From Clostridiales bacterium (GTDB taxonomy: Bacteria > Bacillota > Clostridia > Lachnospirales > Lachnospiraceae), in contig JAMPHY010000001.1 in the NCBI GenBank assembly GCA_023663185.1, positions 42,590 through 106,589 of the forward strand: 64,000 nt of DNA, given 5' to 3'. Below the pieces are notes generated by a model, which saw nothing but the letters and a program-made list of their open reading frames with translations, was not told the DNA's origin and ran no database searches. Each line of letters opens with the position of its first letter. Position 1 is the first letter of the stretch. Made by a program: the position numbers and the translations under genes. Positions 3,322 to 42,647 of the stretch are shown piece after piece.

Positions 3322-3388
3322 GGGTGATTGATTAAATCCCCAAATATGTTATCATACTATTAGCTGTTCGTAGAAAGGAGCCTTTATT

Positions 3389-3793
3389 ATGAAAAAAAGA
3401 ATATGTATTATTTTGCTGACGTCTATACTGCTAGTGGTCGTTCTTGTAATTGGCTTTAGCGCTTTTTTCGGCAGGAGACCGTACAAGGATTTGAATGCGG
3501 CTCAGATAGCGTCTGTTACGGTTCACTTAATACCACCGAACGAAACCGTACAAATTACGGAAATTGAAGAATTTACAGCTTATCTCAAAGATATAGTCAT
3601 TTATAATAAAGATAATTCTTACACAGATTATAGTGGACAATCTATTATTTTCACATTGACTATGACAGATGGTACACAAACAAATGTCAGGGCATATAAT
3701 CCGTTTTTCGTGATTGACGGCGTTGGTTATAAGACAAAATATGAGCCTTGTGAAGCGCTGAGTAATTACGCGAATAGGCTGCTTGAGCCGTAA
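3389..3793 (+). CDS. Hypothetical membrane-anchored protein
   Basis: The protein has 134 residues. A lysine/arginine-rich start is followed by one strongly hydrophobic segment (about residues 5-27), then a soluble domain rich in beta-strand-like stretches. There is no lipobox cysteine, so the segment is probably a signal anchor or an uncleaved signal peptide and the domain is outside the cell. AAGGAG at 3375-3380 supports ATG 3389. I recognise no catalytic motif; it resembles the small uncharacterised anchored proteins common in Lachnospiraceae. Function unknown. Confidence 0.75.
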   Translation: MKKRICIILLTSILLVVVLVIGFSAFFGRRPYKDLNAAQIASVTVHLIPPNETVQITEIEEFTAYLKDIVIYNKDNSYTDYSGQSIIFTLTMTDGTQTNVRAYNPFFVIDGVGYKTKYEPCEALSNYANRLLEP

Positions 3794-4440: not shown

Positions 4441-7400
4441 ATGGTGCAGCGAATAGATTTAAGCGGTGAATGGGAATTTTGCATTGATGTAGAAAAGCAG
4501 GGCGTAGAAGAGAAATTCTTTGAACACGGCTTTAATGACATGATTAAACTGCCTACAACAACGGCGCAGGCGCGCAAAGGCGCGAAAAACAATGAAAAAT
4601 CCGTGATGTACTTAACCGAATACTATCATTTTGAAGGTTATTCATGGTATAGGAAATGTATTGAACTTGATGAGCTTAGTCAAGGGCAAAGGTGCTTCTT
4701 AAGAATGGAGAGGACGAGGATTTCAAGCGTGTGGTTGAATGATGTATTCGTAGGTACGCAGGAAAGCCTGATTTCAGCACATTGGTATGATTTGACGGAC
4801 GCTATTTTGGCGTGCGGGGACAATAATGGACAGGTAGATGTGAAGAACCGTGTCGTAAGTGGGCAGGCAAATACTAAGAATTTCGTCGCAAATGGTCGGA
4901 AAGAAAAGAAGAAATATTATCTCACTGTCATGGTGAGTAATGTAGATTACAAGGCTCCGGGCGGGCATATGACGTCGCCCGATACACAGACTAACTGGAA
5001 CGGCATTCTGGGGGATATATCGTTGTATCTGTATCAGACTGTGCGGATTGCAGACGCGCAGATTTATACAAGCGCCGAGGATAGAAGAATTGATATGAAG
5101 TTAGTTGTATCAAACTTTGGAGATACAGGCGAAGGGGAAATCATAGTTGAGAGTTCTCTTTTGAAAGAAATCCGCAAGGTTGGACTAAAAAAGGGTGAAA
5201 ATGAGATTGCATTGAGTTTTGATATTGCGGCAGAAAAAGAGATTGTTCTCTGGAATGAGTTTACGCCTTCACTTTATCAAGTTAATATTTGTGTAAATGC
5301 AGAGGGGTGTATGCCAAAAATGGCAGTAAATGCAGATGATTGTATGTCAAAAGGAGACGGGAATGCGGCAGAGAGCAGCGACAGTGTTACAGTGACGACA
5401 GGTTTTCGTGACCTTCATACTTCCGAAGACTGCTTTTATTTAAACGAACTGCCGATTTTTCTCAGGGGAAAGCAGGAAGGCTTGGCGTTTCCGATAACAG
5501 GTTATGCGCCAATGGATACAGATGCGTGGAGGCAGCGCTTCAAAATAGCTAAAGACTATGGGCTCAACCATTACAGATTCCATACCTGCTGTCCGCCGGA
5601 AGCCGCTTTTGTAGCGGCAGACGAAATGGGGATTTATCTTGAGCCGGAAATTCACTTCTGGGGAACGATAGCGGAACCGGGCGAGCCGGAATATGATAAA
5701 GCCAGACAGGATTATTTGATTGAAGAAGGTTATAAGATTTTGCAGGAATTTGGAAACCACCCGTCATTTTTGATGTTTTCGCTGGGAAATGAGCTCTGGG
5801 GGAGCGCGAAGGAACTAAGCAGGATTTTGCGGCTTTATAAAGCGGTGGATAAGCGCCATTGGTATACGCAGGGTTCTAATAATTTTCAGTTTACGCCGGT
5901 GATTTTAGAAGAAGATGATTTCTTCTGCGGAGTGCGTTTTTCAAAAGAGCGGCTTTTCAGGGGTTCATATGCTATGTGCGACGCTCCGCAGGGGCATGTG
6001 CAGCTTTTGGAGCCTGAGAATACATATAGTTATGATGAGGTTTTCAACTCTTGTGCAGAAAAACGTCGCAAGAGTGCGAACGCAGTGGGTTTGGCACTGG
6101 ACGACGGCACTGTAGAAATCCAATATCAGACCGGAACAAAAAAGGTGAAAGCCGCGGACACAAATGAGCAGTTGGAAGTACATATTCCGGTAGTGTCCCA
6201 TGAAATCGGGCAGTATGAAACTTATCCGGATTTTCGTGAAATAGAACGCTATACGGGAGTGCTGGGGGCGGAAAACTTTAAAATCTTTAAGAAACGTTTA
6301 GAAGATGCGGGAATGCTCCATAAAGCGCACGATTTCTTCAAATCATCAGGCGCATTGGCGGTGGCGTGTTATAAAAGAGAGTTGGAAACAGCTTTTAGAA
6401 GCAGTAAACTTGCCGGTTTTCAACTTCTGGATTTACAAGACTTTCCCGGACAAGGCACTTCGCTGGTGGGAATTTTAAATGCTTTTATGGAAAGCAAAGG
6501 CTTGATTGAAGCAGGAGAATGGCGGCAGTTCTGCTCAGAGCGCGTTATTATGCTGCAGTTTCCTAGATATGTGTATCAGGCAGGGGAGAATTTTAATTAT
6601 CAGGTTTTATTTTATAACGGAAATCCTAACCCTATTGAGAATGCCAAATTGCAGATAACATTGGAAGAATGCAATGCCAATTCTGATATGAATGCTCAGA
6701 ATAAAGTCGCAAAACAGCTAATTCCTCTTGGGAACTTGACGCAGACACGCCTATCCTGCCTACATGAAGGACAGATATTACTGCCGGATAAAGAAATGAC
6801 TCAAAAAGACAAGACACAAGAATATGGGGCGCAAGAATACAGACCTAAGAAATACAGGATTACCGTGGAAATATGCGATACGCAGATTAGGAACAGTTAT
6901 GAGATTTATGTTTATCCTGATATTCAGAGGCGCGCATCGGATAAAGTTGTGGTTACGAACGATAGGGCGGAAATGCTCATTAATCTGAAACAGGGTAAAA
7001 AAGTCCTTTATCTTGGCGGCAGACTGCATGATGATTATAGCATGGAAGGAACTTACTGTGCTAATTTTTGGAATTATCCCATGTTTGCGTCAATCTCTGA
7101 GAATATGGGGAAGGAAAAACCGATTGGAACTATGGGACTTTGCATAGAAAGCACGCACCCGGCGTTTGATTTATTCCCGACAGAAAGCTATACGACGCCA
7201 CAGTGGTGGAAGATAGTTACAGGGACGAGGCTGGCGCTTTTGGATAATACGGAAGTCGAACCTATAGTGTGGACGATTGATAATTTTGACAGAAATCATA
7301 AAATCGGCTTAATTTATGAGGCAAAGGTGGGCGATGGCTCTTTGCTGGTATGTCAGAAGGATTTGTTATGCGCTGTATCGCCGGAAGAGAACTGGTTGTA

Positions 7401-35829: not shown

Positions 35830-35898
35830 TATATTAAGCGATACTATTTATGAATATATTAAAATACAGAATACTATATGCCATATCCGCATATATGC

Positions 35899-35927
35899 TT
35901 GATTGTTTTTACTTTTTCTAGTAGAAT
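35899..35927 (+). promoter_or_regulatory. Promoter of the three-gene AT-rich cassette
   Basis: TTGATT (35899-35904), a 17-base spacer and TAGAAT (35922-35927) lie 35 bases before ATG 35962. An imperfect palindrome TATATGC/GCATATA (35875-35895) sits just upstream. Confidence 0.5.
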
Positions 35928-35961
35928 AGCAAATAGTTTTGGTATAAGGAGGACTGAAGAA

Positions 35962-36153
35962 ATGTCTATAAAGAAAACAAGGCATTCTACTGTAGTACAC
36001 AGAGAAGTTACCATAGAGAAAATTGAAGATATTCTCCGAAATCAAGAAAATATAATTACAACAAATGACCGTTCAAGTGAGGACGATGCTTTTGAGATTG
36101 CTTTGCAAGGTTCTAAAGCATATTTAGAGGCACAGGGTTATTTAGAAGCTTAG
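35962..36153 (+). CDS. Small hypothetical protein, first gene of an AT-rich cassette
   Basis: The protein has 63 residues, with a basic start (MSIKKTRHSTVVHREV) and an acidic, helix-prone remainder. It has no membrane segment. AAGGAGG (35946-35952) with 9-base spacing makes it a confident gene. Its stop overlaps the binding site of the next gene, so the two are probably made together. The size and pairing suggest an antitoxin or a small DNA-binding partner, but I recognise no family. Confidence 0.65.
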   Translation: MSIKKTRHSTVVHREVTIEKIEDILRNQENIITTNDRSSEDDAFEIALQGSKAYLEAQGYLEA

Positions 36154-36165
36154 GAGGACTAAAAG

Positions 36166-36681
36166 TTGTTACCAGATGTGATTTCAGAGAAAGACTTTAG
36201 GTATAAGACACTATCTGCAAAGAAGATAAAGAAATCTTATAGTTATTTTAAACAATTGTTAGATGATTTTTCTATGACAATAGAATCGGGAGAAATTGAA
36301 ATAAACTTACCGATAGTATGTCGGATATTTGTACGGGTTGATCAACGAAAAGATTATTATATGTATTATCATTCAACGGATAAGAAAATTATGAAGATGT
36401 CACATGAAAAAGAATTAGCCCTTTGGGCATATTGGGTATGTAAATATAAACCTATAAATTTTGTTAATAGTTTGGATGATGAACATTTTTTTAATAGTCA
36501 TGGATGTACAGTGAGTGATGCATTTGCTTCATATATCATTATTTCAGCAGTATGTGCAAAGAATAAGAAAAAAGCAAAGTATTTTTCAGAACGTGTTGTA
36601 AAAGACCTTTATTATGATTTGGCAAATAGAGATTTTAGCAAGGAAGCGATAATTTCAAAAATTGTGGATTTAATAGGTTAG
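36166..36681 (+). CDS. Hypothetical protein, second gene of the cassette
   Basis: The protein has 171 residues and starts at TTG 36166 behind a perfect AGGAGG (36152-36157). It is soluble, lysine-rich and mostly helical, with the stretch KELALWAYWVCKYKPINFVNSLDDEHFFNSHGC-like in the middle holding two cysteines and aromatic residues. I recognise no family. The gene is AT-rich with many A/T-ending codons, unlike the pectin genes before it, which suggests acquisition. The next gene begins 11 bases after its stop. Confidence 0.65.
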   Translation: MLPDVISEKDFRYKTLSAKKIKKSYSYFKQLLDDFSMTIESGEIEINLPIVCRIFVRVDQRKDYYMYYHSTDKKIMKMSHEKELALWAYWVCKYKPINFVNSLDDEHFFNSHGCTVSDAFASYIIISAVCAKNKKKAKYFSERVVKDLYYDLANRDFSKEAIISKIVDLIG

Positions 36682-36692
36682 GAGCGATATGT

Positions 36693-36992
36693 TTGTCTAT
36701 GATAAAGGACTTTCTGGAATTTTTTTATAATAATCATCAGATTATGTGGGATAATATTGTTGTTTTTATTATATGGGGATTATTATGTTCAGGAGTTACT
36801 GGCGCTATAACATCTGTACATAATACAAGGCTCAGAAGGACAAACGATGTTTTGAAAGATGAACTTGCAGCATTGAAAGAGAAATATTCTCAATTAGATG
36901 AGAACGAAAGATTGCTGATGGGGCTGGAAAATTCTTTGCAGCCATCAGCAAAAGCTGTAAGTAAAAGATTTCAACACAAAAGAAAAAAATAA
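36693..36992 (+). CDS. Small membrane protein with coiled coil, third gene of the cassette
   Basis: The protein has 99 residues. One transmembrane helix (about residues 17-40, IMWDNIVVFIIWGLLCSGVT) is followed by a coiled-coil-like segment (RRTNDVLKDELAALKEKYSQL) and a basic tail (KRFQHKRKK). GGAG (36681-36684) fits TTG 36693 with 8-base spacing; ATG 36699 is an alternative. It could anchor or organise its two soluble partners at the membrane. Family unknown. Confidence 0.6.
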   Translation: MSMIKDFLEFFYNNHQIMWDNIVVFIIWGLLCSGVTGAITSVHNTRLRRTNDVLKDELAALKEKYSQLDENERLLMGLENSLQPSAKAVSKRFQHKRKK

Positions 36993-37062
36993 GTAAAAGT
37001 AAAATTTACATAAAAAGGTAGAACACAAAAATCTATCTAAATGTCCAAATGAAAATTTATAT

Positions 37063-37091
37063 TTGACTGGATAAACAAAATAAGATATAAT
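37063..37091 (+). promoter_or_regulatory. Promoter of the peptide-ABC transporter unit
   Basis: TTGACT (37063-37068), a 17-base spacer and a perfect TATAAT (37086-37091) would start transcription near 37098, about 28 bases before the peptide gene. Confidence 0.75.
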
Positions 37092-37125
37092 TCATTTGAC
37101 TAAATGATGGAAGGAGCGATGTACT

Positions 37126-37191
37126 ATGAGAAAAATTAATATTATAGTAACTAAACATGGCTCCCAGCATAAAGTCAACTCTAGTTATTGA
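37126..37191 (+). CDS. Candidate 21-residue peptide gene ahead of ABC exporters
   Basis: This short gene encodes a basic, hydrophobic start (MRKINIIVTK) and a polar end (HKVNSSY). AAGGAG (37110-37115) lies 10 bases before the ATG, and a strong promoter lies directly upstream. It is the only well-initiated frame in the 412 bases before the first ABC transporter, with a terminator hairpin between them. It could be the precursor of an exported or modified peptide, a signalling peptide, or a leader peptide that controls the terminator. It lacks cysteines and a GG leader, so it is not a classical lanthipeptide or C39-type substrate. Confidence 0.5.
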   Translation: MRKINIIVTKHGSQHKVNSSY

Positions 37192-37354
37192 TACTTATTA
37201 TTACTACATTTTATTGCAATGTATGAAGTTGAGATGTCTATATATAAACAACCATTATTCTTTCTTAGCTGAAACATACGCTTTTTTCATATGGTGATAA
37301 TTAAGTTCGTAAACTATAGATTAGTTTTCAGAGTAGATAAAAAAATCCTTTTAG

Positions 37355-37384
37355 CTTGGGAGTCACATATCCCAAGTATTTTTA
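37355..37384 (+). terminator. Leader terminator between the peptide gene and the ABC transporter
   Basis: CTTGGGA (37355-37361) pairs with TCCCAAG (37370-37376), followed by TATTTTTAT. It lies just before the AAGGAG of the first ABC gene, so part of the transcripts should stop here, giving more peptide message than exporter message. Confidence 0.65.
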
Positions 37385-37404
37385 TGCCCAAAAAGGAGAT
37401 TTTT

Positions 37405-39132
37405 ATGAAAGAAAACTTAAAATTTATTTGGCTATATGCCAGGAATTACAAAATCAGATTGTCTGTAATGCTTTTTAGTATCCTATTAACATCTATATCC
37501 GGAGCGCTTTTCCCTTTCTTCCTTGGAAAAATGATTAATAGTCTATTATATGGAAGGGATTATGTTCTCTTTTTTCGCAACTTCTGTTTGTATGGCGCAT
37601 TCTTCTTGGTGCAACAATTAATGCGTTTTATCAATACAAGACAGTATGCTGTTCTTGAAACCACTCTTCTTTTTGATATACGAAGAGATACTTTAAAAAA
37701 CATATTTTCAAAATCAGCAGGTTATTTATCCCAGATGGACAGAGGTGACACAATATCGAGAATAGAAAAGGACGTTCATCAAATACTCGACTATATTTAT
37801 TTCAACCTTTTTTATTCTATTTCGGATATTTTTGAATTTGCTTCACAGATAGTTTTGATTCTGCGGATAAGTTGGAAACTATTAATTCTTACCATTATTT
37901 GTATGCCGATATCTTTCCTTCTTCCAAGATTCTGTTCAGGAATATTAAAAAGATATTATCAGAAGCAATCAGAAATAGATGGAAAATTAACAGGTTGGTT
38001 TTTTGATATTATTAACAGTTTGGTTGATATCCGTTTACTTTCCGGAGAACAAAAGGTAAACTTCGATTATCTTAAACAGAAAGAAAACTACATAAGTATC
38101 CGAAAATCTACAACAAGGATTGAAACGTTTACGCAGATTGGAATAGAAGGAACAGCAGTTATATTGAAAATTCTTTTATACAGCGTTTCAGCGTTTCTGG
38201 TTATACGAAAAGAAATGTTAATAGGAAACTTTATCTCGGTAATAGAATATTTTAACTCTTCACTTACTATTTTTAATGAAATAGCTAACCGGACAAATCC
38301 AATTACAGAAAACATGGTTGCGATAGACCGTGTCCGAAATATTATATCCTTACCGCAGGACGTTTTTGTCCCTGAAATATTTGCCTCTGCCGCAAGCGAC
38401 ATACGTTTTGAAAATGTAAATTTCAGATACAAGAAGGAAGGACCTCAAATTCTTAATAACTTATCTTTTTATATAAACCCCGGAGAACATGTGGTATTTG
38501 CGGGGGAAAGTGGATGTGGAAAAACGACGATAACCCGTCTGATGATGAATTTTTATAGCCATGATAACGGAAATATCTATATTGGAAATATGGATATGAA
38601 ACAAAATAAAAATGTGAATTTGTCATCAAAAATAGGTGTGGTTTTCCAAACAACAGCCATTTTTGAGGGAAGTATCAGATACAATTTGATATTCTCTGAT
38701 AATATGGAACGTGATAACGAAATCTGGCTTGTACTGGAAAGAGTCGGATTGTCTGAGTATATTAATTCACTTACCAGTGGATTGTCTACTGAATTATCCG
38801 GACTGAATACCCATCTGTCAGGCGGGCAGATACAAAGGATTGGCATTTCCAGGACACTGTTGAAAAATACAGACATTATTATTTTTGATGAACCGACATC
38901 GGCTTTTGACTGGAAAAGCGAACAGGTTTTTCTTGAAATGTGTCAGGCATTTTATCGTCAAAAAACAATAATTATGATTTCACACAGGGTAGAGACGCTA
39001 AAAGCGGCAGACAGGGTTTATTTTATTAAAAATGGAAAAATTGAAGCAGTTGGCAAACATGAAGAATTACTTGCTAAAAACAGTGATTATGTGAAATATC
39101 TTAATAAAGGAGAGCTGGCAAATGAAAAATAG
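37405..39132 (+). CDS. ABC half-transporter 1 (permease plus ATPase)
   Basis: The protein has 575 residues. About six transmembrane helices (residues 1-310) precede a nucleotide-binding domain with Walker A GESGCGKTT, Q-loop VVFQT, signature LSGGQIQRIG, Walker B IIIFDEPTS and H-loop ISHR, all intact. It is an exporter-type fold. No C39 peptidase domain is present, so it would not trim a GG leader. I start at ATG 37405 (AAGGAG 37393-37398); the frame back to 37291 runs through the leader terminator. It overlaps transporter 2 by 11 bases, so they likely form a heterodimer. Confidence 0.9.
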   Translation: MKENLKFIWLYARNYKIRLSVMLFSILLTSISGALFPFFLGKMINSLLYGRDYVLFFRNFCLYGAFFLVQQLMRFINTRQYAVLETTLLFDIRRDTLKNIFSKSAGYLSQMDRGDTISRIEKDVHQILDYIYFNLFYSISDIFEFASQIVLILRISWKLLILTIICMPISFLLPRFCSGILKRYYQKQSEIDGKLTGWFFDIINSLVDIRLLSGEQKVNFDYLKQKENYISIRKSTTRIETFTQIGIEGTAVILKILLYSVSAFLVIRKEMLIGNFISVIEYFNSSLTIFNEIANRTNPITENMVAIDRVRNIISLPQDVFVPEIFASAASDIRFENVNFRYKKEGPQILNNLSFYINPGEHVVFAGESGCGKTTITRLMMNFYSHDNGNIYIGNMDMKQNKNVNLSSKIGVVFQTTAIFEGSIRYNLIFSDNMERDNEIWLVLERVGLSEYINSLTSGLSTELSGLNTHLSGGQIQRIGISRTLLKNTDIIIFDEPTSAFDWKSEQVFLEMCQAFYRQKTIIMISHRVETLKAADRVYFIKNGKIEAVGKHEELLAKNSDYVKYLNKGELANEK

Positions 39133-40825
39133 AATGTCTTATTTTATGCAGTTTTCACCATATATGGCACAGAGAAAAACAGATTTGTATATTTGGGCGC
39201 TTTTTGAGTTATTTATAAAAATATTAATTCTGGCAAACCCATTTATTTATATACAGTTAATAGATAAAATTATGGTTGAGAATCAATTATACTTTTTAAA
39301 ATATGTTATTGCATCAATTCTTATTGTTTATTTTTTGTCTGGCATAGCCAAAATAGTATCATGGAAATTCCATAGTCGGTTTTTCCTGAACTTTGAGAAA
39401 AACCTTCAGAATGCGCTGCTTAATAAATATTTGGATATGCCAATTGGGAAAATTTTGAGAAGTGATTTAGGAAATCTGAAAAAAACTATTACCGAAGATG
39501 CCGCAACTGTTTTAGTATTGGTAGAAAAGAATATTTTCCGTTATATATTATCGATAATTACTATCTTTTCATTATCCATACTGTTATTTGTGATGTCTCC
39601 GGTACTTGCAATTATAGCTTACATGTTCATTCCGCTCTCTTTTTGGGTAACTAAAAAAATAGGGAGAAAAGCGGAACAATTAACGAAAGATATAAGAAAT
39701 ACACAAGGGGAATATGAGAAATTGCTATATAACATATTAGGAAATTGGGAATCTATAAAATATAACCATCTTTTTTCTACAATCATAGGCAAAGTGGAGA
39801 TATATTGGCAGAAATTATCCGTAAAAATCCTTAAAAAGCAGACGGTCTCTTTTGCAAATAGAGCTTTTATATCCTTTAAGGATTATATTGTACTTGAAAT
39901 GGGACTCTATTTCATAGGCGGGATATTGGTTTTTAGCGATAAACTTACAATTGTTTCTCTGATTGCATTTATGGGATATTTGTCGGTATTTTTAAAAAGT
40001 GTAACTGAAATTTCAGACAATATATTTGAATATCATCAAAACCTTCCACAAATACAAAATGTTGCCCAGACAATAAATATTGATATTCCTCAGCATAAAA
40101 TATTACAGTCATTTTCATCAGTCAAATTGCAAAATGTTTCAGTCTCATTTGAGGAGTCTCATATAGATGCTTTAAAAAATATAAATCTGACCATAAATAA
40201 AGGGGAACATATTGTTATTGCTGGTCATAACGGCTCCGGAAAAACTACTTTACTCAGAGCAGTTATGGGGATACAGCCTGTCCAAAATGGGAATATTCTG
40301 CTTAATGATATACCCATAAGGGAAATAGATGAAAAAAGCATATATAAAAAAATAAGATATCTTCCACAGACTCCACATTTTATTAATGGGACGATAAAAG
40401 ACAATCTATCAATCAGCAACCCTGAAATGAGTGAAGACAGAATGGTTGAAGCCTGCGAGAAAGTAAATTTACTAAGCTTCGTACAAAATTTGCCGCAAAA
40501 ATTTGATACTGAAATCCATGATAGCGGGGTTAGGCTCTCTGGAGGTCAGAAGCAGAGGCTTGCCATTGCACGATTAATACTAGCAGCTCCAGATGTTTTA
40601 GTCCTTGATGAAATAACGGCATCAATGGATGAAGAGAACAGTCAGATGATACAAAACATAATTCAAAATGAATTTAGTGAGAAAACAGTAATTGCCATTT
40701 CACATAAGTGGAGCGAGATAAAAACATTTCCGCGCATTATTATAGTTAATTCAGGAAAAATAGTAGTGGATACATCTTCTAACAAACTTGATGAGGCAGA
40801 GTTCTTTCGTCTGTTTGAACAGTAA
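39122..40825 (+). CDS. ABC half-transporter 2 (permease plus ATPase)
   Basis: The protein has 567 residues, with an N-terminal six-helix membrane domain and a C-terminal ATPase: Walker A GHNGSGKTT, Q-loop YLPQT, signature LSGGQKQRLA, Walker B VLVLDEITAS and H-loop ISHKW. Both ATP-site halves keep the catalytic Glu. It is translationally coupled to half-transporter 1 and very likely pairs with it. The substrate could be the peptide encoded at 37126-37191. The A/T-rich codon use matches transporter 1 and the small genes before it. Confidence 0.9.
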   Translation: MKNRMSYFMQFSPYMAQRKTDLYIWALFELFIKILILANPFIYIQLIDKIMVENQLYFLKYVIASILIVYFLSGIAKIVSWKFHSRFFLNFEKNLQNALLNKYLDMPIGKILRSDLGNLKKTITEDAATVLVLVEKNIFRYILSIITIFSLSILLFVMSPVLAIIAYMFIPLSFWVTKKIGRKAEQLTKDIRNTQGEYEKLLYNILGNWESIKYNHLFSTIIGKVEIYWQKLSVKILKKQTVSFANRAFISFKDYIVLEMGLYFIGGILVFSDKLTIVSLIAFMGYLSVFLKSVTEISDNIFEYHQNLPQIQNVAQTINIDIPQHKILQSFSSVKLQNVSVSFEESHIDALKNINLTINKGEHIVIAGHNGSGKTTLLRAVMGIQPVQNGNILLNDIPIREIDEKSIYKKIRYLPQTPHFINGTIKDNLSISNPEMSEDRMVEACEKVNLLSFVQNLPQKFDTEIHDSGVRLSGGQKQRLAIARLILAAPDVLVLDEITASMDEENSQMIQNIIQNEFSEKTVIAISHKWSEIKTFPRIIIVNSGKIVVDTSSNKLDEAEFFRLFEQ

Positions 40826-40845
40826 TTAGTTTTTATATTTAATTA

Positions 40846-40930: not shown

Positions 40931-41452
40931 ATGAAACAGGAAGAACTGGAAGTCTATATTGATACATACGGCAAAGATTTATATTCTTTTTGCTGCTGTG
41001 TGGCGAATGACCGTCAGAAAGCCGAGGATTTGTATCAGGACACATTTTTGAAAATGTATGAAGCAATGGAAAAAATCACCATCATAACTAATCCTAAAAG
41101 CTTTTTAATGGGAGTGGCGCTAAATCTTTATCGGAACTATAAAAGAAAGACATCGATAAGGCAGAGGATTTTGGGGAATAGAGTGCAGGTCGATGAAAAT
41201 TCCGCAGATATTCCTTCAAAAGAAAAAGCACTCGATGAGGTGATGATTTCTAAGGAAGAGTGTGAGGCTGTGAGAAGGGCTGTAAATAAGCTTCCGGATA
41301 AGTATAGGATTCCGGTTATCTTATTTTATATGGAAGAACTTTCACAGGCGGATATTGCGGCGATGATGCAGATTTCTGAAAGTGCGGTAAAAACAAGGAT
41401 ACACAGGGCAAAGAAAATATTGAGGGAAAAATTGGAGGGTTATTATGAATAA
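40931..41452 (+). CDS. ECF-type RNA polymerase sigma-70 family factor
   Basis: The protein has 173 residues. Region 2 is visible as KAEDLYQDTFLKMYEAM and region 4 as LPDKYRIPVILFYMEELSQADIAAMMQISESAVKTRIHRAKKIL, with the usual short linker and no region 1 or 3. It should direct polymerase to stress-response promoters. GGAGG precedes ATG 40931. It overlaps the next gene by 8 bases; that gene encodes a membrane-anchored DUF4179-like protein, the usual anti-sigma partner. Confidence 0.93.
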   Translation: MKQEELEVYIDTYGKDLYSFCCCVANDRQKAEDLYQDTFLKMYEAMEKITIITNPKSFLMGVALNLYRNYKRKTSIRQRILGNRVQVDENSADIPSKEKALDEVMISKEECEAVRRAVNKLPDKYRIPVILFYMEELSQADIAAMMQISESAVKTRIHRAKKILREKLEGYYE

Positions 41453-42647
41453 AGATATGGATAAGCTGCTTAAAGCTGCTTTAACTCCGATAGAGCTGCC
41501 GAATGCAGAATTAAATGAATTAAACGACCGGGTTCTTCTAAGATTAAAGGAGAGAGATGATATGAAAAACGAACAGAGACGTTACAAGGGAAGAATTGGC
41601 GCAGCGGCAGCAATAGTAATGGGCGTTTTATTAGTATGCTCAGGCACGGCATTTGCCATATATAAGTATTTAAGCCCTGCGGAAGTGGCAAAGGAGGCAA
41701 GCAACGATGCGCTGCAAAAGGCGTTTTTAAGCGAAGACGCGATACTGGTGAATGAAACAATAGAAAGCGGCGGATACAAAATCACTCTTTTAGGAAGCGT
41801 AACAGGCAAAGATATAAATGAATTTATCTCTGATGGAGTGCCAAAGAATGACAGAATATATACGGTAGTGGCAATAGAACGCACTGACGGCACTCCCATG
41901 CCTGATACTTCTTCCGACGACTATGGAAAAGAAGCTTTTTATGTATCGCATTATATTCATGGGCTGAATCCCGCAAGATACAGTTTAATGAGTATGGGGG
42001 GCGGATATACGACGCTTGTCAGGGACGGAATCATGTATCGGATTTTGGATATGGACAATATCGAGATGTTTGCGGATAGAGGCATCTATGTGGGGGTAAG
42101 TTCCGGAACCTTTTATGATGCGGCGGCGTATACATATGATGAAAATACCGGAGAAATGAGCCGTAACGGTGATTATGATGGCGTAAACGCCCTATTTGAA
42201 CTGCCTGTTGATAAAAGTAAGGCAGATCCGGCAGCGGCGGAAGCCTATCTGAAAGAGTTTGAGATGTCTATGAATGCACCATCTAAGCCTTATGAAAAGA
42301 ACGCGGTTGACCTCGGCGTAGATGAGTTTATGGAAAAGCTGACGCCTGAGAATATTGATGAATATGCGGTGCCTATTGAAGCGACCAGACAGATATGCCG
42401 GCTTGATGAACAAAAGAATATCAGCTATTCATATGATTTAGGCGATAGTACATGCGCAGGAATTACGTCGTTTGATAAATTGTTTCCGGACGGTAAGCCC
42501 GGAATGAGCAGCATATTCAACTACGATTATTCTGAGTCGGGGCTGGCGGATTTATACATAGATGTATTTATCCTTAATGAAGACGGTACGGTTACATATG
42601 TGGTATATCAGCCAAAGGAGTTGGAGTCAGAATTAAGGCCGGAGTGA
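41445..42647 (+). CDS. Membrane-anchored DUF4179-like anti-sigma factor
   Basis: The protein has 400 residues. A cytoplasmic N-terminus (1-50) is followed by one transmembrane helix (about 51-72, GRIGAAAAIVMGVLLVCSG) and a large extracellular domain. This matches the DUF4179 proteins that sit behind ECF sigma factors. It should hold the sigma factor inactive until an envelope signal is received. The short ELPNAELNELNDRVLLRLKE stretch is the likely sigma-binding helix. The signal is unknown. Confidence 0.83.
   Translation: MNKDMDKLLKAALTPIELPNAELNELNDRVLLRLKERDDMKNEQRRYKGRIGAAAAIVMGVLLVCSGTAFAIYKYLSPAEVAKEASNDALQKAFLSEDAILVNETIESGGYKITLLGSVTGKDINEFISDGVPKNDRIYTVVAIERTDGTPMPDTSSDDYGKEAFYVSHYIHGLNPARYSLMSMGGGYTTLVRDGIMYRILDMDNIEMFADRGIYVGVSSGTFYDAAAYTYDENTGEMSRNGDYDGVNALFELPVDKSKADPAAAEAYLKEFEMSMNAPSKPYEKNAVDLGVDEFMEKLTPENIDEYAVPIEATRQICRLDEQKNISYSYDLGDSTCAGITSFDKLFPDGKPGMSSIFNYDYSESGLADLYIDVFILNEDGTVTYVVYQPKELESELRPE

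What the first reader, a model, noticed from the sequence alone, without database searches (positions are those of the whole stretch)
37063..40825. Own-promoter 21-residue peptide gene followed by an attenuator and a pair of ABC exporters
A perfect TATAAT promoter, a well-spaced AAGGAG, a 21-codon gene (37126-37191), an intrinsic terminator (37355-37384) and two overlapping intact ABC half-transporters lie in that order. This is the architecture of a secreted or signalling peptide with partial read-through into its exporter. The peptide has no Cys, no GG leader and no C39 protease domain in the transporter, so it fits none of the common bacteriocin classes I know. It could instead be a regulatory leader peptide for the exporter.
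Basis: partly seen in the sequence, partly recalled or inferred. Interest (0 to 1): 0.75.

Follow-up and report, generated by a model that had tools for sequence, protein, structure and literature searches.

The report
Ribosome-sensing switch on mobile exporter cassette
A 21-codon reading frame, a transcription terminator and two exporter-type genes form one compact cassette that has likely passed between different Lachnospiraceae bacteria, and the tiny frame is predicted to act as a ribosome-sensing switch for the exporters rather than as a signal peptide they carry out of the cell.

Summary
The anatomy described is real: promoter, well-spaced Shine-Dalgarno, 21-codon frame, intrinsic terminator and two overlapping ABC half-exporters without a C39 domain. 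The same unit (window ~37053-40827, ~91.6% DNA identity) occurs in two other Lachnospiraceae genomes between unrelated flanks; a third carries leader and first exporter up to its contig end. Acetate kinase of those hosts is only 63-77% identical, and a same-genus genome lacks the unit at the same place. It is most simply a horizontally moving cassette with its own leader. The frame is kept in 4 of 4 leaders, but its 8 variable codons all change the residue, so residue-level conservation is not seen. Codons 12-14 can pair either with the frame's own Shine-Dalgarno region or with the 5' arm of the terminator. In folding models a ribosome on the start codon moves them to the terminator in 4 of 4. 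That is the wiring of a ribosome-mediated attenuator (bmrB-bmrCD, rli80-hflXr, mef(E)L-mef/mel). It is a new member of a known kind, predicted only: with the complete terminator present the terminator still wins at equilibrium, and translation, inducer and substrate are untested.

The parts
37063..37091 (+). sigma-70 type promoter, TTGACT - 17 - TATAAT
   Evidence: 11 of 12 consensus bases; TATAAT in 4 of 4 and TTGACT/TTGACC in 4 of 4 leaders
37111..37129 (+). segment A: Shine-Dalgarno AAGGAG and start region of the leader frame, predicted to pair with codons 6-8 and 10-14
   Evidence: sequence; first 94 nt z -3.74, -2.90, -4.05, -3.46 in the four leaders
37126..37191 (+). 21-codon leader frame MRKINIIVTKHGSQHKVNSSY
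   Evidence: start, stop and frame kept in 4 of 4; 8 variable codons, all nonsynonymous
37159..37168 (+). segment B GGCUCCCAGC (codons 12-14 and the first base of codon 15), pairs with A or, alternatively, with C
   Evidence: best duplex partner of the terminator 5' arm in the whole upstream leader in 4 of 4
37192..37286 (+). fast-evolving spacer
   Evidence: 11-19 differences per pair over 92-94 aligned bases plus gaps
37346..37352 (+). anti-Shine-Dalgarno UCCUUUU, predicted to pair with the ABC1 ribosome site
37354..37363 (+). segment C: 5' arm of the intrinsic terminator, GCUUGGGAGU
   Evidence: pairing with B predicted when a ribosome covers the start codon
37370..37384 (+). segment D: 3' arm of the terminator and U-rich tail
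   Evidence: stem kept in 4 of 4
37393..37398 (+). Shine-Dalgarno AAGGAG of ABC1, 6 bases before its ATG
37405..39132 (+). ABC1, ABC half-exporter (membrane domain plus ATPase), no C39 domain
   Evidence: PF00664 and PF00005; relatives 89-91% identical in three loci
39122..40825 (+). ABC2, ABC half-exporter overlapping ABC1 by 11 bases
   Evidence: PF00664 and PF00005; full-length in L011 and L012
37053..40827 (+). whole cassette: promoter to ABC2 stop
   Evidence: blastn match limits against L011 and L012, 91.6% and 91.7% over 3.78 kb, no other match between those loci and the 18 kb of window compared; absent at the same place in G1224

Best explanation
The 21-codon frame is likely the leader frame of a ribosome-mediated transcription attenuator that would control an apparently horizontally moving pair of ABC exporters. 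Transcription would start at the cassette's own promoter. With no ribosome on the leader, the frame's Shine-Dalgarno and start region (A) pairs with later codons including 12-14 (B), so the terminator (C:D) forms and transcription would stop before ABC1 (predicted). If a ribosome is held on the start codon, A is covered and B is free, so B would pair with the terminator's 5' arm (C) before the 3' arm (D) is made. The polymerase would then read into the exporters. The same pairing cannot nest with the helix that hides the ABC1 ribosome site, so it may also expose that site. A ribosome that runs on into the frame covers B and restores termination. The signal would therefore be translation held up at the start of the leader, for instance by a ribosome-targeting inhibitor, and the response would be export. 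Shown: anatomy, conservation, cassette boundaries, pairing potential. Inferred: horizontal movement. Predicted: folding states, switching. Untested: translation, inducer, substrate.
For: Promoter, frame and terminator accompany ABC1 in 4 of 4 loci. 37098-37125, codons 10-22 and 37354-37404 change slowly, the spacer fast. The first 94 nt fold better than shuffles in 4 of 4. B is the best partner of C in the whole upstream leader in 4 of 4; only 4, 14, 7 and 10 of 1000 shuffles of the first 94 nt, and 3, 27, 14 and 31 of 1000 shuffles of the whole upstream leader, do as well (window, L011, L012, L013). Before D is made, P(B:C) is 0.02 or less without a ribosome and 0.99-1.00 with one on codon 1 in 4 of 4, and 0.00 at codons 8-22 in 4 of 4. 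With B:C forced, pairing between UCCUUUU and the ABC1 Shine-Dalgarno falls from 0.64-0.83 to 0.00 in 4 of 4. The layout, a short frame in the anti-anti-terminator region, matches the passages read for rli80-hflXr and resembles bmrB-bmrCD and mef(E)L.
Against: With D present, the terminator wins at equilibrium for every ribosome position modelled: P 0.69 at codon 1 and 1.00 elsewhere in the window leader, 1.00 throughout in the other three. At codon 1 it is favoured by 0.5, 5.6, 4.8 and 4.4 kcal/mol, so the switch needs B:C to hold kinetically. The effective ribosome positions are few and not shared: codon 2 gives 0.98, 0.95, 0.90 and 0.02, codon 3 gives 0.98, 0.13, 0.03 and 0.01, codon 7 gives 0.52, 0.37, 0.46 and 0.01. 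Without a ribosome the arm C still pairs partly with the first 94 nt (0.39, 0.37 and 0.23 in the three leaders tested), though hardly with B. Codons 1-9 are not slow (2-7 of 27 per pair). The block with the terminator is weakly structured in two leaders (z -1.64, -3.63, -1.64, -4.79). No covariation in the leader: one of 93 predicted pairs has changes on both sides, and it lies upstream of the assumed start of transcription. The four leaders are close relatives, so 4 of 4 is not four independent tests. No arrest motif that I know was recognised (by eye). No Rfam family.
Confidence: 0.6

Rival explanations
1. RNA-only leader: the conserved hairpin is a protein- or ligand-sensing regulator in front of an attenuator, and the 21-codon frame is incidental or barely translated because its ribosome site is buried.
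For: Variable positions of the first 94 nt fall mainly in unpaired bases (8, 10, 10 and 11 of 12, hypergeometric p 0.12, 0.017, 0.017 and 0.004, by each leader's own fold); but sliding the window structure by one or two bases does as well (9 of 12), so this is weak. No sign of residue-level conservation. Strong hairpin over the start site.
Against: Shine-Dalgarno, spacing, start, stop and an open frame are kept in 4 of 4 without indels, while the spacer has indels. The A/B/C wiring makes direct sense with a ribosome on A.
Confidence: 0.18
2. Secreted or signalling peptide: the frame encodes a short peptide that the ABC pair exports, with partial read-through setting the ratio; the variable N-terminal half would be trimmed and the KHxSxHKVNSxY half would be the product.
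For: The last 12 residues are the most alike (3 of 12 positions vary, against 5 of the first 9); the nonsynonymous-only pattern could also be diversifying selection; the distant ABC relatives found include a pair inside a biosynthesis-like cluster (L033).
Against: No double-glycine and, by eye, no Sec-type leader; no C39 domain; no maturation gene in the cassette; much of the conserved half pairs with A and C, so RNA constraint can explain it; zero synonymous changes also in that half.
Confidence: 0.12
3. Constitutive exporter pair with a chance leader frame: the terminator only lowers expression, nothing is switched.
For: Promoter- and terminator-like counts are at chance level; equilibrium folding keeps the terminator for all ribosome positions.
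Against: Leader elements kept in 4 of 4, and a low rate in 37098-37125, codons 10-22 and 37354-37404 compared with 4-fold sites of ABC1 (14-26%).
Confidence: 0.1

Closest known systems
bmrB-bmrCD of Bacillus subtilis (PMC4191407; abstract, one section and passages read)
   Same: [quoted passage not shown] ribosome as sensor.
   Different: There the frame is 53 codons and contains the terminator; here it is 21 codons and the terminator stem begins 162 bases after the stop. BmrCD has Asp500 at its degenerate ATP site (passages of PMC10632425), while both subunits here have Glu. Induction was shown there, not here.
mef(E)L - mef(E)/mel attenuator on mobile elements (PMC4335068; abstract and one section read)
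   Same: Short leader frame in a leader of ~300 bases, long-range anti-attenuator pairing to the terminator region (174 bases apart there, 185 here), leader conserved with a mobile efflux operon.
   Different: Leader peptide MTASMRLR; efflux by mef/mel(msr(D)), not an ABC exporter pair; the first distal repeat lies after the frame, here it lies inside the frame.
rli80-hflXr of Listeria monocytogenes (PMC6310831; passages read)
   Same: [quoted passage not shown] a start-codon change blocked induction there.
   Different: Controls a ribosome-splitting factor homologue; 14-codon frame with the RLR motif, absent here.
patAB attenuator of Streptococcus pneumoniae (PMC4319486; abstract read)
   Same: Intrinsic terminator upstream of a two-gene ABC exporter limits its expression.
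   Different: No leader frame mentioned in the abstract.

Membership tests
ribosome-mediated transcription attenuator | short frame with ribosome site upstream of an intrinsic terminator and of the controlled gene | tested here: met
   kept in 4 of 4
ribosome-mediated transcription attenuator | anti-terminator pairing that excludes the terminator | tested here: met
   B:C is the best partner of the terminator arm in 4 of 4, 3-31 of 1000 shuffles as good; pairing potential only
ribosome-mediated transcription attenuator | ribosome position decides between the two folds | tested here: inconclusive
   yes before D is made; no at equilibrium with D present
ribosome-mediated transcription attenuator | translation of the frame is needed and ribosome inhibitors induce read-through | not testable with these tools
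   needs reporter or RNA-seq data
BmrCD-type heterodimeric multidrug exporter | two ABCB-type half-transporters encoded together | tested here: met
BmrCD-type heterodimeric multidrug exporter | one degenerate ATP site (catalytic Glu replaced in one subunit) | tested here: not met
   Walker B reads FDEP in ABC1 and LDEI in ABC2, both with LSGGQ (read by eye from the translations); feature as stated in PMC10632425 (passages)
double-glycine peptide exporter (C39/PCAT) | N-terminal C39 peptidase domain and double-glycine substrate | tested here: not met
   no C39 model matched; no GG in any of the four peptides
known Rfam RNA family | match at the curated score | tested here: not met
   none in the window; best weak match STnc220, E 0.37, 21 bits against a cut-off of 60

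The most novel reading that the evidence does not exclude
A mobile exporter cassette that senses ribosomes held at initiation: only a ribosome parked at the very start of the leader frame frees codons 12-14, which both defuses the terminator and opens the exporter's ribosome site, so one pairing switches transcription and translation together.
Probability: 0.2. Interest if true: 0.7.

Novelty: new member of a known kind. Interest (0 to 1): 0.42.

Why it matters
Leader-controlled efflux that moves between genomes is known to me mainly from drug-resistance elements such as mef/mel (PMC4335068). Here a rare, compact unit of the same design is predicted in Lachnospiraceae (1 of 77 genomes of the window's genus), with an exporter pair of unknown substrate. 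If the switch works, its inducer would point at the kind of compound the exporters handle, which sequence alone cannot give.

Tried and rejected
More leaders were sought and not found. Family 1 of 299, order 1 of 392 (query P0010), class 2 of 391 (own genome and one distant ABC protein), genus 1 of 77; the close hit is each time the window's own genome, and these samples overlap. Relatives of the three host genomes: 1 of 145, 2 of 194 and 2 of 117, that is the hosts themselves and two distant ABC genes. Plasmids: no match at E 1e-60. Phage records: 27 matches, all below 60% identity, 26-29% in the 8 rows shown. Viral contigs: none.

The distant ABC relatives L033, L034 and L061 were read upstream by eye. 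I saw no comparable leader, but did not search them with an RNA model.

An ABC1 start at 37291 (613 codons) was rejected: the other three leaders lack that ATG and have one base fewer in the A run, which shifts the frame. A second spacer frame, 37219-37272, is shifted by an extra base in L012 and stops early in L013. Simple equilibrium competition as the switch was tested and failed. Insertion ends: among the 15 direct families and the 25 of 27 inverted pairs listed, none marks both ends of the cassette. PADLOC matches of both exporters have their best stretch in the ATPase half. Solved-structure search gives generic ABCB- and ABCC-type exporters and the like; BmrCD is not among the 60 rows shown for either protein, of 562 and 580. 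Paper searches that combined ABC transporter, Lachnospiraceae, Clostridium, leader or attenuation terms showed no paper on this cassette in the rows listed (20 of 67, 12 of 34, 12 of 65 and 3 of 3; titles and abstract starts seen).

The structure prediction tools were not used.
Full report
Observation. Searches confirm every element at the given coordinates. Counts of promoter-like and terminator-like sites in the region are at the level of shuffled sequence (28 against 24.6; 2 against 1.9), so the consensus matches alone prove nothing. Both ABC proteins carry PF00664 and PF00005 and no peptidase domain. NCBIfam gives 186 and 191 families; the 25 rows shown for each are all well under their curated cut-offs, so no substrate can be named.

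The unit recurs and probably moves. The next best match of ABC1 in its own genome is 24% identical (170 bits against 1265 for itself). A scan of genome contigs gave 34 candidate stretches, of which 3 encode relatives: L011, L012 and L013, 91, 90 and 89% identical over residues 1-575, all Lachnospiraceae MAGs. Compared with an 18-kb piece of the window, DNA similarity in L011 and L012 is limited to 37053-40827 (91.6% and 91.7% over 3.78 kb); L013 matches the leader and ABC1 up to the end of its contig, so ABC2 is seen whole in 3 of 4. Between L011 and L012 the match runs about 30 bases further at the 3' end, and between L012 and L013 some tens of bases further at the 5' end. Neighbouring genes differ, with one exception: L012 and L013 share a related gene on the 5' side, in opposite orientations, with a 116-base DNA match at 85%. 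Acetate kinase, encoded 5 kb from the cassette in the window, is 64% (host of L011), 77% (L012) and 63% (L013) identical, well below the cassette, so horizontal transfer is the natural inference; it rests on this one reference gene and the changed flanks. In G1224, a genome of the same genus with 99% identical acetate kinase, the sequence up to 36999 (95%) and from 40832 (90%) is present with 98 bases between: the cassette is absent there, by insertion here or loss there. In the genus 1 of 77 genomes has it.

The leader. In four leaders the frame keeps start, stop, Shine-Dalgarno and length. Eleven of 66 columns vary; 8 codons vary, every one changes the residue, none is synonymous only. For the window-L013 pair, 7 changed codons are all nonsynonymous, against 97 synonymous and 63 nonsynonymous in ABC1; at the ABC1 proportion this has a chance of about 0.0015 (my arithmetic). 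So the frame is not conserved as ABC1 is; either the residues do not matter or they diversify. Differences per pair: 37098-37125 0-1 of 28, codons 1-9 2-7 of 27, codons 10-22 0-3 of 39, spacer 37192-37286 11-19 of 92-94 with gaps, 37287-37353 2-9 of 66, 37354-37404 2-4 of 51, promoter 37063-37097 4-7 of 35, while ABC1 4-fold sites differ at 14-26%. The first 94 nt fold with z -3.74, -2.90, -4.05 and -3.46; the 3' block from 37287 with -1.64, -3.63, -1.64 and -4.79. Variable positions lie mostly in unpaired bases, but sliding the structure by one or two bases does as well, so I give this little weight. Covariation is absent in the transcribed part.

Wiring. Codons 12-14 with the next base read GGCUCCCAGC (GGCUCCCGGC in L011, where A-U becomes G-U; UGCUCCCAGC in L013). 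This segment pairs with GGAGC of the frame's own Shine-Dalgarno (A:B) and, better than any other part of the upstream leader, with the terminator's 5' arm GCUUGGGAG (B:C) in 4 of 4; shuffled first 94 nt reach that energy in 4, 14, 7 and 10 of 1000 and shuffled whole leaders in 3, 27, 14 and 31 of 1000. An earlier test on three of the four leaders (L011 left out) found pairing of the arm to the first 94 nt at 0.9 or more, with the start site masked, in 13, 6 and 12 of 300 shuffles; the rise on masking was matched by 5, 7 and 1 of 300. In transcripts cut before the 3' arm, P(B:C) is 0.017, 0.000, 0.000 and 0.000 without a ribosome, 1.00, 1.00, 0.99 and 0.99 with one on codon 1, then uneven up to codon 7, and 0.00 for codons 8-22 in all. 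With the full terminator the hairpin wins at equilibrium, by 0.5, 5.6, 4.8 and 4.4 kcal/mol at codon 1. The model therefore depends on the order of transcription, as in other attenuators (general knowledge). B:C cannot nest with the helix between UCCUUUU and the ABC1 Shine-Dalgarno; with a ribosome on codon 1 and B:C forced, pairing of that site falls from 0.73-1.00 to 0.38-0.42 in 4 of 4. A real RNA could form a pseudoknot, which this program does not model. The start of transcription at 37098 is assumed from the -10 box.

Comparison. The layout matches ribosome-mediated attenuators: bmrB-bmrCD (abstract, one section and passages), mef(E)L on mobile elements (abstract and one section), and rli80-hflXr, where a short frame lies in the region of the anti-anti-terminator (passages). 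It differs in the narrow range of effective ribosome positions and in lacking the RLR motif. The exporters are not BmrCD-like at the ATP sites: both Walker B motifs keep the glutamate (read), while heterodimers of that type are described with one replaced (passages of PMC10632425).

Verdict. The secreted-peptide reading is not supported; the leader reading is, at the level of prediction. The system is a new member of a known kind on a little-known, probably moving exporter cassette.

Noticed in passing
window 37119-37139: An ATG seven bases before the leader start opens a 6-codon frame (MYYEKN) in another frame; it ends after 6 codons in L011 and L012 too, but runs 17 codons in L013 (read by eye). 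Its Shine-Dalgarno spacing is short.
   Followed up: partly
L013 about 5764-5811: A GC-rich insertion of 48 alignment columns sits in the leader spacer of L013 only.
   Followed up: no
L058 about 3380-3400 (G1224 empty site): The empty site carries a hairpin ACCACCGGCTAAGTCGGTGGT that recalls ends of IS200/IS605-type elements (recalled, not searched), so the place may be a landing site for several elements.
   Followed up: no
window 35878-36992: Three small genes upstream of the cassette have no Pfam, NCBIfam or PADLOC match at E 0.001; the DNA is also present at 95% identity beside the empty site in G1224.
   Followed up: partly
L012 3151-4548 and L013 3744-5117: Both loci carry a related gene (both proteins share NIEWKESWRDEYLKWICGFANAQGGKIYIG near the N terminus) on the 5' side of the cassette in opposite orientations; it may be chance or a shared hitch-hiker.
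   Followed up: no
L011 4297-5528 and 9470-11064: The cassette in L011 lies between transposase-like frames and two genes that look like an AbiE-type pair (names recalled from the translations, not searched).
   Followed up: no
L033 555-11939: A distant ABC pair sits in a cluster with ligase-like, carrier-protein-like and radical-SAM-like genes (read from translations), which looks like a natural-product or peptide pathway.
   Followed up: no
window 40931-42647: An ECF-type sigma factor gene and a gene with no Pfam or NCBIfam match follow the cassette; they belong to the host site, their DNA being present in G1224 as well.
   Followed up: partly
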